Below, in pieces: positions 3,507-62,422 of a stretch of DNA of 64,000 nucleotides. The stretch is taken from contig NZ_VFQC01000001.1 of NCBI RefSeq assembly GCF_006717075.1, positions 3,271,501 to 3,335,500 of the forward strand, written 5' to 3'. This DNA comes from Haloactinospora alba (GTDB lineage: Bacteria; Actinomycetota; Actinomycetes; Streptosporangiales; Streptosporangiaceae). Positions within the stretch are counted from its first letter, which is position 1, and every line of letters begins with the position of its first letter. A model generated the notes under the pieces. It had not been told where the DNA came from. It made no database searches and worked only from the letters and a program-made list of their open reading frames with translations. A program made the position numbers and the translations under genes.

Positions 3507-3567
3507 CCAGGGCCTGTTCGACGGATGCGCCGCGCAGCAGGACAAGCGCCCACCGGACAGGCCCTAG
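3507..3567 (-). mobile_element. Short inverted-repeat element, copy A (MITE-like), supplies nnr stop codon
   Basis: The ends GGCCTGTTCGACGG and, read on the minus strand, GGCCTGTCCGGTGG are imperfect inverted repeats about 53 bases apart. The inner arm GCTTGTCCTGCTGCGCG is shared with copies at 49.5 and 56.2 kb. The right edge is CTAG, whose TAG is the stop codon of nnr. Confidence 0.6.
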
Positions 3568-5057
3568 ACGGCGACGTCCCGGAACGCCCGCGGCAACGCC
3601 TCGACCAGGTCCGTCGCCGACACCGGCGCGCCGTCCCGGGCGATCCGGGCCGCCAGACCGTGCAGGAAAGCACCCGACATGGCGGCCGTACGCGGCGCGA
3701 GCCCCGAGGAGAGCAGCGCCCCGGCGAACCCGGACAGGACGTCGCCGGTTCCCGCGGTAGCCAGCAGCGGCGTACCGGTCGGGTTGGCCACCGCCGGGCG
3801 CCCCGGTTCGGCGACAACGGTGGTGGAGCCCTTCAGGAGCACGGCGCAGCCGTACTCCTCCGCCGCCCGCGTCGCGTGCTCCAGCCGGCGCGCCTCGACG
3901 CTCTCGCGCCGCGTCTCGGGAAGCAACCTGGCCAGCTCGCCGGCGTGCGGGGTGAGGAGGGTGGGAGCCTCCCGTTCCCGCACCAGGCGCGGCCTGCGCC
4001 CCAGCAGGGTGAGCGCGTCGGCGTCCACCAGGACCGGAGCATCCGAGGCCAGCAGGGTTTCCAGTTCGCGTTCCGCGTCGGCGTCCACCCCGCGTCCGGG
4101 GCCCACCACCCACGCGTCGACCCGGTCGGGCAGCCCGGCGAGGGGCCGCTGCGGGTCGAGCACCGAGACGACCGTCTCCGGCCAGCGGTCCAGGACGGCA
4201 CCGGCGACGCTCTCCCGGCCGGCGTAGCGCACCATCCCCGCGCCGCCGCGGAACGCGCCACCCGCCGCCAGCACGGCCGCTCCCCGGTAGCGGTCGGACC
4301 CCACGGCCAGGGCCAGCACCCCGCGCCGGTACTTGTCGGACTCCGCGCCCGGTCGCGGCAGCGAAGCGGCGACGTCGGCGGCCCGCGGGCATTCCAGGCA
4401 GGCGGTGGGAAGCTCCGGCTCCAGCCCGATGTCGACCAGTTCCACCACGCCGGCCCGGCCAGCACCCGGGTCGACGAACAGGCCGGGTTTGTACGTCCCG
4501 AACGTGACCGTGACGTCGGCACGCACCGCCGGCCCGCGCACGGCCCCCGTGTCGGCGTCGACACCGCTGGGCAGGTCCACCGCCACCACGGGCGCACCGG
4601 AACCGCTGGCCCACGCGGCGACGGTGGCGTGCGGCTCCCGCAACCCGCCGGAGCCGCCGATACCGACGAGCCCGTCCACGACGAGGTCGGCGCTGTCCAG
4701 CTCGGCCGCGGCCTCGGAGTCCGTGTCCACGGCGGAACCACCGGGGAGTTCGACCGGGCGGCCGCCCGCGGCCCGCAGCGCCCGCAGCCCGGCCTCGTGG
4801 ACGCGCGAACCGGCCAGGACGGCCCGCACGGCGGCGCCGCGCCGGGCCAGTTCCGCCCCGGCGTACAGCGCGTCCCCGCCGTTGTCGCCGCTACCGACGA
4901 GCAGCACCACCCGCGCCCCGTACACCCGGGGCAACATCCGCGCGCACACCACCGCCAGTCCGGCCGCGGCGCGCCGCATCAGCTCCCCGTCGGGCAGGCG
5001 CGCCATGAGCGCGTCCTCGGCGGCGCGCACGGTCTCCACCGTGTGGGCGTAGCGCAT
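3564..5057 (-). CDS. nnr: Bifunctional NAD(P)HX epimerase/dehydratase
   Basis: A 497-residue fusion repairs hydrated NAD(P)H. The N-terminal YjeF-N domain (about residues 1-210) epimerises NAD(P)HX and shows the LLVGSGDNGGDALYAGAELA nucleotide loop. The C-terminal ribokinase-like YjeF-C domain (about 220-495) dehydrates it using ADP or ATP; it shows VVGPGRG, LLTPHAGEL, VLLKGSTT and the catalytic loop ATAGTGDVLSGF. The ATG at 5057 has AGGAGG upstream and matches the usual N-terminus; longer in-frame starts add non-conserved residues. In Streptomyces-type genomes this gene usually sits near glmS-glmM, as here. Its stop codon lies in an inverted-repeat element. Confidence 0.93.
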   Translation of the reverse strand: MRYAHTVETVRAAEDALMARLPDGELMRRAAAGLAVVCARMLPRVYGARVVLLVGSGDNGGDALYAGAELARRGAAVRAVLAGSRVHEAGLRALRAAGGRPVELPGGSAVDTDSEAAAELDSADLVVDGLVGIGGSGGLREPHATVAAWASGSGAPVVAVDLPSGVDADTGAVRGPAVRADVTVTFGTYKPGLFVDPGAGRAGVVELVDIGLEPELPTACLECPRAADVAASLPRPGAESDKYRRGVLALAVGSDRYRGAAVLAAGGAFRGGAGMVRYAGRESVAGAVLDRWPETVVSVLDPQRPLAGLPDRVDAWVVGPGRGVDADAERELETLLASDAPVLVDADALTLLGRRPRLVREREAPTLLTPHAGELARLLPETRRESVEARRLEHATRAAEEYGCAVLLKGSTTVVAEPGRPAVANPTGTPLLATAGTGDVLSGFAGALLSSGLAPRTAAMSGAFLHGLAARIARDGAPVSATDLVEALPRAFRDVAV

Positions 5058-6873: not shown

Positions 6874-6986
6874 ATCCGGCCGTGACCAGCGTGATGGGAC
6901 ACCGCATCGGGTCCCGTCCGGTGGAGGCCGTTCGTCACGAACGGCGCCGGGGCGCCGCGCGGTAGGGCGAGCACCCCGGACCGGAC

Positions 6987-7931
6987 CTACGTCTTTCGCA
7001 GCCGGACGCGGCGCACCCCGTGGTCCTCGCCCTTGTACAGCACGAGGGTGGCCCGGCCCCGCGTCGGCCGGATGTTCTCCACCAGGTTCACCTCGTTGAT
7101 GCTGCGCCAGGTGTTGCGGGCGAACTCGAGTGCCCGGCTCTCGTCCAGGGTGGTGGCCATCGAGTGGAAGTAGGAGCGCGGGTCCGAGAAGGCGGTGCGG
7201 CGCAGCTCCAGGAACCGTTCCAGGTACCAGGAGCGGATGTGTTCCACCTTGGCGTCCACGTAGATGGAGAAGTCGAAGAAGTCCGCGACGGCGAGCCGCC
7301 CCGCCTGAGGCGGTTGGAGGACGTTGATCCCCTCGACGATCAGGATGTCCGGCCGGTGGACCGTCTGCACGCTGTCGTCGAGGATGTCGTAGGCCAGGTG
7401 CGAGTAGACCGGGATGTCCATCCGGGAGGCGCCCGCCTTCATCGCGGACACGAACCGCACCAGGCTGCGGCGGTCGAAGCTCTCCGGGAACCCCTTGCGG
7501 TTCATGAGGCCGCGTTCCTGCAGGACCGCGTTGGGGTAGAGGAAGTTGTCGGTGCTGACCAGTTCCACGTGGGGATGGTCCGGCCACTGGGCGAGCAGGG
7601 TGCGCAGCAGCCGGGCCGTGGTGGACTTCCCGACCGCCACGCTGCCGGCCACGCCGATGATGAAGGGAACGGGCTGGTCCCCCTCCCCCAGGAAGTCGCG
7701 TACCGCGGCGTGCCGCTGCCGGGTCGCCTTCACGTACAGGTTGAGCAGCCGCGACAGCGGCAGGTAGATGTCCTCGACTTCCTCCATCGAGGTGGGGTCG
7801 GTGGTACCGCGCAGGACTTCGAGCTCCGACTCGGTCAGCGCGAGCGGAGTGGAGCTGCGCAGTGCGGCCCACGCCGTCCGGTCGAGTTCCACATACGGCG
7901 ACGTGATGCCGTTCTTCGTCGCGTGAGACAC
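6987..7931 (-). CDS. coaA: Type I pantothenate kinase
   Basis: A 314-residue enzyme that phosphorylates pantothenate, the first and regulated step of coenzyme A synthesis. The P-loop [12 protein letters not shown] lies at residues 93-104, followed by [22 protein letters not shown] and [12 protein letters not shown], all diagnostic of bacterial type I PanK. Length equals the family norm. In actinomycetes coaA commonly neighbours glmS, as it does here in divergent orientation, with 324 bases of shared upstream DNA. Confidence 0.96.
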
Positions 7932-49403: not shown

Positions 49404-49491
49404 TAACCATCCTACCCGGGGCAACGGGGTGCTCGAGACGCCGCGGGCGCTCGGCCACCCCGTCGGCACCGGTGCGGGGTCCGGACCCCTG

Positions 49492-49655
49492 GGTCCTGTT
49501 TTCGGACGCTGTTCGTCGCGAGCGGCGTCTCCGGTGCCGCCCGGCAAGGCCGGTCAGGGAGGCGGAGCGGATCCTCCGCCGACCGACGGGAACGCCGCCG
49601 GGCGGTGTCCTGGGGCGGCGCGCAGCAGGACAAGCGTCCGAAAAACAGGACCTAG
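49492..49655. mobile_element. Short inverted-repeat element, copy B (about 165 bp, MITE-like)
   Basis: The left end GGTCCTGTTTTCGGACGCT (49492) and the right end, read on the minus strand, GGTCCTGTTTTTCGGACGCT match over 19 of 20 bases as terminal inverted repeats. The right end continues TGTCCTGCTGCGCG as in the other copies. CTAG at the right edge supplies the stop of the lipoprotein gene. No transposase is encoded inside. Confidence 0.7.
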
Positions 49656-50425
49656 TAGCTCGGAGTCTCCAGGCCCCCCATCATGTCCTCCATCGAGCCG
49701 ATCTCGTCCTCGCTGGGGTAGTCGATCTCGACGCCCTGGTTGAACTCGTCGAACGTCATGCTCGTGTCGAAGCTCGAGCCGTCCGTGCTGTTCACCTTGC
49801 GGGGGAAGCCGTCGTCATCGATCCACACCTCGAAGTCGATGCTGTCGATGTTGTTCTCCTCGTAGTACTGCTTGCTGGCGTCCTTGAGGTCCCCCTCCTC
49901 GAGCTCGGCGAGGGCCTCCTCGACGGTGTAGCTGCCGGAGTACTTCGTGGTCTCCGTCCCCTCGACGGTCTCGGAGCCCTCCTCGGTGACGTCCTCGGCC
50001 GCGAGCATCATCTCCACCTCGGCGGCCGGGTTCTGCGCCTCCAGGTCCATCTCCGAGCCCAGTCCGTCGCTCTCTCCGACACGCAGCCACTCCGGACCGG
50101 AGGAGGGGGCCATCTCCCCCATACCCGAGCCGGCCTCCATGAGCATCTCGTCGCCGCGCATCAGCATGGTCGACTCGGTCCCCTGGTACTCCGTCAGCAT
50201 CTTGATCGTCGGCTCGGGCTCGGCGGTGTACTCCATCTCCATGTCCCCGACGCCGCCCTCGGAGAACGACATGGTGGCGGTGTAGCTGTCGACCTCCGCC
50301 GTCTGCTCGGCCATGTTGCTCACGATCTCGACCGGAGTCTGTCCCAGGCCCGGGACGAGCCCGCAGCCGGAAGCGAACACGGCGATTCCGGCACCCGCAG
50401 CGATACCGGTGGTCCTTCTCAACAT
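49652..50425 (-). CDS. Secreted lipoprotein, LppX/LprAFG-like
   Basis: A 257-residue protein with a lipoprotein signal: MLRRTTGIAAGAGIAVFASG then Cys21 in the lipobox ASGC. The mature part is very acidic (many Glu, Asp, Met) and shows an alternating beta pattern (SYTATMSFSEGGVGDMEMEY; KYSGSYTVEEALAELEEGDL; EVWIDDDGFPRKVNSTDGSS) like the LolA/LppX fold that carries lipids or lipid-like cargo. The match is by pattern, not by a defining motif. It lies between rplA and rplJ, where few genomes have an inserted gene. Its TAG stop is part of the inverted-repeat element. Confidence 0.75.
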   Translation of the reverse strand: MLRRTTGIAAGAGIAVFASGCGLVPGLGQTPVEIVSNMAEQTAEVDSYTATMSFSEGGVGDMEMEYTAEPEPTIKMLTEYQGTESTMLMRGDEMLMEAGSGMGEMAPSSGPEWLRVGESDGLGSEMDLEAQNPAAEVEMMLAAEDVTEEGSETVEGTETTKYSGSYTVEEALAELEEGDLKDASKQYYEENNIDSIDFEVWIDDDGFPRKVNSTDGSSFDTSMTFDEFNQGVEIDYPSEDEIGSMEDMMGGLETPSY

Positions 50426-55181: not shown

Positions 55182-56207
55182 ATGGGACGCCCGATCCCCT
55201 TGCTACCGAAGGCACACCTGCACCTGCACTTCACCGGTTCCATGCGGCACGCCACGCTGGTGGAACTGGCCGAGCAGCGCGGTATACACCTGCCCCAGGC
55301 GCTGGTCCGCGAGTGGCCCCCCACGCTGCGGGCCACGGACGAACGCGGCTGGTTCCGGTTCCAGCGGCTGTACGACACCGCCCGTTCCGTGCTGCAGCAG
55401 CCGGAGGACATGTACCGGGTGCTGCGCGAGACCGCGGAGGACGAGCGGGAGGCGGGCTCCGGCTGGTTGGAGATCCAGGTGGACCCGAGCGGCTACGCGT
55501 CCCGGTTCGGTGGCCTCACCTCGACCCTGGAGCTCATCCTGCAGGCGGCCCGTGCGGCCGAGCAGGAGACGGGTGTGGGGATCGGCATCATGGTGGCCGC
55601 GAACCGGACCAAACACTCCCTGGAGGCCAAGACGCTGGCCCGTCTGGCGTCCCAGTACGCGCGGCACGGGGTGACCGCCTTCGGTCTCAGCAACGACGAA
55701 CGCCGCGGCCGGGCGCTGGACTTCGAGGGGGCGTTCCGGATCGCCCAGCGCGCCGGACTGCTGTCGGCTCCGCACGGCGGGGAGCTCCAGGGACCGCGCA
55801 GCGTGCGCGAGTGTCTGGACGAGCTCGCCGCCGACCGGATCGGCCACGGCATCCGCGCCGTCGAGGACCCCCACCTGCTGGAGCGGATCGCCACCCAGCG
55901 GGTCACGCTGGAGGTGTGCCCGAGCTCCAACGTGAGTCTGGGGGTGGTTCCCGACGTGGAGCAGGTACCGCTGCGCCGGTTGTTCGACGCGGGCGTGCCG
56001 GTGGCGCTCGGCACGGACGATCCGCTGCTGTTCGGCCCCCGCCTGGGTGAGCAGTACGAGAACGCCCGCTGGGTTTTCGGGTTCTCCGACGCGGAGCTCG
56101 CCGAGTTGGCGCGGATGTCCATCCGCGGCTCCACCGCTCCCGAGGCTGTGCGCAAGGAGCTCCTGTCCGGCGTGGAGGACTGGTTGGCGCTTCCGGCCGA
56201 GGGCTAG
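55182..56207 (+). CDS. Adenosine deaminase family protein
   Basis: A 341-residue amidohydrolase. Zinc ligands: HLHLHFTG near residue 12 (the HxH pair), His in SAPHGGELQG, and the Asp in ALGTDDPLLFG. The catalytic helper RIGHGIR is present. The classical HVHLEGT and HAGE motifs of adenosine deaminase are here HLHFTGS and HGGE, and NTDDP is GTDDP. The known alternatives in this branch include adenosine, adenine and 6-amino-6-deoxyfutalosine deamination (menaquinone synthesis), so a precise gene name is withheld. It has an AGGAGG site at 55173. Its TAG stop is in element copy C. Confidence 0.83.
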   Translation: MGRPIPLLPKAHLHLHFTGSMRHATLVELAEQRGIHLPQALVREWPPTLRATDERGWFRFQRLYDTARSVLQQPEDMYRVLRETAEDEREAGSGWLEIQVDPSGYASRFGGLTSTLELILQAARAAEQETGVGIGIMVAANRTKHSLEAKTLARLASQYARHGVTAFGLSNDERRGRALDFEGAFRIAQRAGLLSAPHGGELQGPRSVRECLDELAADRIGHGIRAVEDPHLLERIATQRVTLEVCPSSNVSLGVVPDVEQVPLRRLFDAGVPVALGTDDPLLFGPRLGEQYENARWVFGFSDAELAELARMSIRGSTAPEAVRKELLSGVEDWLALPAEG

Positions 56208-56268
56208 GTCCTGTTCTTCGGACGCTCGTCCTGCTGCGCGGCGTCCCGGCGCCGTCGGTGACAGGCCG
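56204..56268 (+). mobile_element. Short inverted-repeat element, copy C (MITE-like)
   Basis: CTAGGTCCTGTTCTTCGGAC then GCTCGTCCTGCTGCGCGGCG matches copies A and B on the opposite strand. The far end is less clear; ACAGGCC at about 56262 may be its degenerate partner. The TAG at 56205-56207 ends the deaminase gene. Confidence 0.6.
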
Positions 56269-62159: not shown

Positions 62160-62422
62160 ACCACGTCTCGTTGTTGACGTTGCCTTGGCAGGCTAGCGTC
62201 CGTTCGATGGGCGCCCGTCCCACCACGCTGCGCCCCAGCACCGCCCGGCCGCGTTCCCGTCAGTCGGCAGGGGATCCGCTCCGCCCCCTCCCCGGCCGTG
62301 CCGGCGCAGCGCCGGACGCACCGCCCGTCGCGAACAGCGTCCACCGGACCGACCCTAGAACAGGACGCGCCAGCTCCGACATCCTCCCAGCCGCCACGGG
62401 GGCCGCTACCGGATGGGCTCCC

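What the first reader, a model, noticed from the sequence alone, without database searches (positions are those of the whole stretch)
3507..3567. Three dispersed inverted-repeat elements supply the stop codons of three genes
Copies at 3507-3567, 49492-49655 and 56204-56268 share an end close to CTAGGTCCTGTTTTTCGGAC followed by GCTTGTCCTGCTGCGCG. In each, the CTAG gives the TAG stop of the neighbouring gene (nnr, the lipoprotein, the deaminase), always with C as the third base of the previous codon. Copy B has clear terminal inverted repeats about 165 bp apart, and no copy encodes a transposase. I infer a MITE-like family with CTAG as target, inserting where that rare tetramer survives in GC-rich genomes: at stop codons.
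Basis: partly seen in the sequence, partly recalled or inferred. Interest (0 to 1): 0.8.

Follow-up and report, generated by a model that had tools for sequence, protein, structure and literature searches.

The report
GC-rich MITE lodged in stop codons
A small non-coding mobile DNA element, present in dozens of copies in this actinobacterial genome, often sits exactly in the stop codons of genes, where its own first base rebuilds the TAG stop; this makes it a harmless passenger, a neat example of a known kind of element rather than a new system.

Summary
The three sequences belong to one GC-rich (73%) MITE family of about 161 bp (GGTCCTGT...ACAGGACC) with TA target duplications; I found 62 full-length copies and 27 fragments in the sequence read. 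Two more lie in the window: a full copy at 62196-62355, not at a stop, and a decayed one at the panK stop (6910-6987).

Of 51 aligned copies, 35 put an end exactly on a gene's stop codon. Rejoined flanks show the stop was already there at 32 of 36 gene ends. Host TA plus the element's first G remakes TAG, even from TAA. No copy lies inside a called gene.

IS5-family insertion sequences (about 1.03 kb) with similar tips, CTAG targets and TA duplications coexist; one is nested in a MITE's CTAG at a stop codon. They or an extinct relative probably moved the MITE.

CTAG overall is mostly intergenic (about 10% at stops). In GC-matched, well-annotated sequence the excess at stops falls to 2-3 fold and loses significance. 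No MITE copies were found in other genomes.

The parts
3510..3564 (-). MITE copy A, shortened to 55 bp; its minus-strand start G (3564) is the third base of the nnr stop TAG (3566-3564); TA kept at 3565-3566, decayed to CA at 3508-3509
   Evidence: sequence; profile match 3522-3566, E 7e-5
3564..5057 (-). nnr, bifunctional NAD(P)H-hydrate epimerase/dehydratase, stop supplied by copy A
   Evidence: orthologues match to residue 494-496 of 497
49492..49652 (-). MITE copy B, 161 bp, terminal inverted repeats; TA kept at 49653-49654, decayed to TG at 49490-49491
49652..50380 (-). SCO4651-family lipoprotein gene (start uncertain; the ORF runs to 50614), stop supplied by copy B
55182..56207 (+). adenosine deaminase gene, stop TAG 56205-56207 supplied by copy C
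   Evidence: orthologues end at the same C-terminus without an element
56207..56254 (+). MITE copy C, right-end remnant
   Evidence: E 3e-8
62196..62355 (+).
   Evidence: E 7e-23; CTAG at both edges
6910..6987 (-).
   Evidence: (E 0.0085 for part of it)
6987..7892 (-). panK, type I pantothenate kinase, stop shared with copy E
   Evidence: profile matched to its last position, 310/310

Best explanation
This is a family of non-autonomous miniature elements (MITEs, full length about 161 bp, 73% GC). They were moved in trans by an IS5-family (IS427-like) transposase, either of the insertion sequences still present (IS-A, IS-B) or of an extinct relative. The transposase inserts the element at TA, preferably inside CTAG, and duplicates the TA. 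The element begins with G on both strands, so host TA plus element G always reads TAG. An insertion into a TAG or TAA stop therefore leaves the protein unchanged. In GC-rich actinobacterial DNA noncoding CTAG is rare and often a stop codon, insertions inside genes are lost, and those at stops are silent; so surviving copies pile up at stop codons. Shown here: family, ends, TA duplication, stop restoration, absence from called genes. Inferred: which transposase moved it, and that tolerance rather than targeting produces the pattern.
For: 51 aligned copies share ends and length, with no cores in the reversed control. TA on both sides in 20 copies. 35 of 51 at stops; 38 of 62 in the wider profile set, 0 inside called genes. 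32 of 36 rejoined sites already carried a stop, TAG or TAA. IS-A and IS-B are IS5 family, insert in CTAG with TA duplication, and IS-B is nested in a MITE's CTAG. Relatives of IS-B in other genera also sit in CTAG. GC-matched CTAGs show that target availability accounts for most of the stop excess.
Against: MITE and insertion-sequence tips agree only over the first 10 or so bases, and no autonomous element with the full MITE ends was found. A 2-4 fold excess at stops remains in some matched comparisons. No sister genome with empty sites is held. Rows of the far-side TA are more decayed than expected from non-stop copies, unexplained.
Confidence: 0.8

Rival explanations
1. Active targeting: the transposition complex prefers gene ends (for example through terminator structure or transcription/translation termination), so stop codons are hit more often than other CTAGs.
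For: Stop share far above raw CTAG availability (35:16 against 34:213, OR 13.7). IS5 relatives in several genera are at stops in 7 of 23 cases against 26 of 241 noncoding CTAGs (p=0.009).
Against: With GC >=0.70 and gaps <=500 bp the excess is 28:9 against 16:12, p=0.18. No extended palindrome or other motif at target sites. The oldest full copies are rarely at stops (1 of 8).
Confidence: 0.12
2. The element has been recruited as a transcription terminator or mRNA 3'-end stabiliser, and selection for that keeps copies directly behind stop codons.
For: The transcript folds into one long hairpin, -97 kcal/mol, z -6.0; it sits directly behind stops, and 12 of 13 copies between convergent genes are at a stop.
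Against: A long hairpin is expected of any MITE with inverted repeats. Covariation is weak (13 compensated cells against 8.1 +/- 2.5 in shuffles). About one third of copies are not at stops and 10 lie between divergent genes.
Confidence: 0.05
3. Insertions created new stops by cutting genes at tyrosine codons (TAC to TA|G), so the genes are shortened.
For: Mechanically possible; 4 of 36 rejoined sites read TAC or CAC at the junction.
Against: 32 of 36 rejoined sites are already stops, and several proteins reach the ends of their families' profiles.
Confidence: 0.03

Closest known systems
Bacterial MITEs in general (RUP, Correia/NEMIS, ERIC, QMITE2, Chunjie; reviews PMC2229807, PMC10969869)
   Same: Short, no protein, terminal inverted repeats, TA at the edges, dozens of copies, strong hairpin; QMITE2 lies mainly in 3' untranslated regions
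   Different: 73% GC, whereas MITEs are described as typically AT-rich and in AT-rich DNA; most copies lie exactly in stop codons, which the reviews do not describe
IS5 family, IS427 group insertion sequences
   Same: IS5-type transposase, 2-bp duplication, two-frame transposase in IS-A
   Different: The MITE has no transposase and shares only about the first 10 bases with IS-A and IS-B; IS-A and IS-B are about 1.03 kb, the Paracoccus IS427-group elements 0.83-0.87 kb
IS870 (Fournier 1993, known here from its title in PMC6471742) and ISLxc2/ISLxx4 (PMC2516522)
   Same: CTAG target that forms a stop codon at the element's edge
   Different: There the host target supplies the stop of the element's own ORF; here the element restores the stop of the host gene

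Membership tests
MITE | short (<500 bp), terminal inverted repeats, no transposase | tested here: met
   about 161 bp, GGTCCTGT/ACAGGACC ends; no transposase within
MITE | many dispersed copies in one genome | tested here: met
   62 full-length copies and 27 fragments in sequence read; 40 near-full by DNA search
MITE | target site duplication | tested here: met
   TA on both sides in 20 of 51 copies, decayed on one side in 24 more
MITE | ends recognised by an autonomous element's transposase | tested here: inconclusive
   IS-A and IS-B share only the outer 10 or so bases; no element with full MITE ends found
IS5 family (for IS-A and IS-B) | IS5-type DDE transposase | tested here: met
   NF033580 transpos_IS5_3 above cut-off, DUF4096 and DDE_Tnp_1
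IS5 family, IS427 group (for IS-A and IS-B) | 2-bp target duplication and two-ORF frameshift layout | tested here: inconclusive
   2-bp TA met; two-frame layout in IS-A only; longer than the published Paracoccus members; no comparison with ISfinder possible
MITE mobilised by IS-A or IS-B | movement in trans by that transposase | not testable with these tools
   needs a transposition assay

The most novel reading that the evidence does not exclude
A transposition system that actively prefers stop codons (a 3'-end safe-harbour strategy), aided by a terminal G that rebuilds TAG after any TA insertion, so that even TAA stops are replaced without loss.
Probability: 0.12. Interest if true: 0.75.

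Novelty: new member of a known kind. Interest (0 to 1): 0.4.

Why it matters
It gives a clear, quantifiable case of how a mobile element spreads in a gene-dense, GC-rich genome without harm: the join between host TA and element G restores the stop codon, and housekeeping genes (nnr, panK, pyrD, adenosine deaminase, an EngA-type GTPase) end in mobile DNA. It also warns that stop-codon enrichment must be tested against GC-matched targets: most of a 15-fold odds ratio vanished when that was done.

Tried and rejected
(1) Counting CTAGGNCCTGT alone: 67 matches, but the backward pattern gave 64 because it contains the common GATC; the evidence is the aligned families, not the count. (2) Extended palindrome around the target: p=0.046 in 20 intact sites, 0.80 in 24 others, 0.32 in all; rejected. 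(3) An age gradient, with stop share rising as copies age (an idea in my notebook): identity does not differ (p=0.17) and the oldest 8 full copies have 1 at a stop; rejected. (4) Truncation at tyrosine codons; rejected. (5) RNA selection shown by covariation: weak. (6) Sister-species empty sites: no same-genus genome held; in 60 relatives only weak partial matches; the genome-contig scan gave only single, chance-like matches. (7) L096, the eleventh DUF4096 transposase, as the partner: no MITE-like ends seen around it by eye. (8) Rfam: only tRNAs in the window.

Full report
OBSERVATION. The three sequences exist as described. The shared tip is beyond chance, and CTAG is rare in the window (17 seen, 90 expected). 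Boundaries are GGNCCTGT...ACAGGNCC flanked by TA: copy A 3510-3564, copy B 49492-49652, copy C from 56207 as a remnant. A profile built from genome copies finds two more: copy D, 62196-62355, full length, CTAG on both sides, intergenic; and copy E, 6910-6987, decayed, at the panK stop.

FAMILY. The window lies in a 4.94-Mb genome of 4 contigs. DNA search gives at least 40 near-full copies at 84-100% identity; only 40 of 259 first-look candidates were scored. End cores give 46 and 75 matches with none in the reversed control. I aligned 51 copies; a wider profile search of the roughly 1.27 Mb read here gives 62 full-length copies and 27 fragments. Consensus GC is 73%. The two ends differ inside: GGTCCTGTTTTTCGGACGCTTGTCCTGCTGCGCG at one end (R), GGTCCTGTTTTTGGGCGCTGTTCGTCGCGAGCGGCG at the other (L). 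TA is duplicated: where both are intact the target is CTAG 11, CTAA 4, CTAC 3, GTAA 2.

STOP CODONS. Genes were called with a codon model trained on this genome. By the first caller 33 of 51 copies, by a more sensitive setting 35 of 51, have an end exactly on a stop; two copies serve two convergent genes. The two element ends are used equally, 18 R and 17 L. Joining the flanks shows that 32 of 36 gene ends had a stop there before insertion, some of them TAA. Family profiles confirm real genes, several matched to the profile's end: pyrD, an EngA-type GTPase, the C-terminal half of a dephospho-CoA kinase model, acyl-CoA dehydrogenase, DUF3516, a MoaD/SAMP1-like protein. Adenosine deaminase orthologues from other genera end at the same C-terminus; those read use TGA and have no element. 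No full copy lies inside a called gene.

INSERTION SEQUENCES. The genome has 11 DUF4096 transposases: IS-A x4, IS-B x6 (one of them only partly read), one other. IS-A and IS-B are IS5 family, 1031 and 1033 bp, with tips GGGCCTGTTT and GGTCCTGTTT and TA duplicated inside CTAG in eight of the nine copies located; the ninth reads TTA/TAG. At C1:541281-542313 IS-B has inserted into the CTAG of a MITE end that already served as a gene's stop; the stop is again TAG. Related elements in other genera of the family also sit in CTAG, 4 of 13 at stops. No insertion sequence with the MITE's full ends was found, so the mobilising enzyme is inferred.

IS IT MORE THAN TARGET AVAILABILITY? In 798 kb of other sequence, 273 non-element CTAGs are 215 intergenic, 32 coding and 26 stop, which at first contradicts 'CTAG survives at stops'; against this the MITE stop share is very high (OR about 15). 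But MITE sites are GC-rich (mean 0.72-0.73) while intergenic CTAGs average 0.59. Requiring gaps <=500 bp and local GC >=0.70 leaves 28:9 against 16:12, p=0.18; with GC >=0.65 it is 31:11 against 23:37, p=6e-4. My reading: availability in GC-rich DNA, loss of coding insertions and silence of stop insertions explain most of it; a remaining factor of 2-4 may be selection against upstream insertions or real preference. Limits: my own gene caller, not a curated annotation, underlies these counts; the background stretches were chosen by hand between known copies; several cut-offs were tried, and the answer depends on them, as shown.

MECHANISM. Insertion at TA with duplication gives NTA|G...C|TAN. 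Because the first base is G on either strand, any stop beginning TA becomes TAG. Shown: anatomy, duplication, restoration. Inferred: an IS5-type transposase acting in trans.

KNOWN. MITEs with TA ends are well known (PMC2229807, PMC10969869); IS427-group elements mostly duplicate 2 bp (PMC3281130); CTAG targets forming stops are known for the element's own ORF (IS870, cited in PMC6471742; ISLxc2 in PMC2516522). I found no description of a MITE family concentrated in host stop codons, but few searches were made and the library lacks most subscription papers. Verdict: new member of a known kind.

Noticed in passing
G000 C1:541281-542313 (L007, L091): IS-B is nested in the CTAG of a MITE end that already formed a gene's stop codon, so the same stop has been remade twice.
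   Followed up: yes
51 aligned copies: In copies at stops the far-side TA is kept in only 8 of 24, while ends of non-stop copies keep it in 21 of 28 (p=0.005); not explained.
   Followed up: partly
L027:1343-1511 and L044:3214-3379: One MITE copy supplies the stops of two convergent genes at once, one at each end.
   Followed up: yes
G000 C3:300545-303720 (L064, L175): Two MITE copies bracket genes that look like ectoine synthesis genes; one copy ends the last of them.
   Followed up: no
G000 C1:2606257-2607162 and C1:3563891-3564796: Two of the IS-B copies carry an in-frame TAG in the transposase, so not all copies are intact.
   Followed up: no
L176-L215: CTAG is under-used even at stops (32 CTAG against 63 GTAG, although CTGA 198 and GTGA 177), a general avoidance of CTAG in this genome.
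   Followed up: partly
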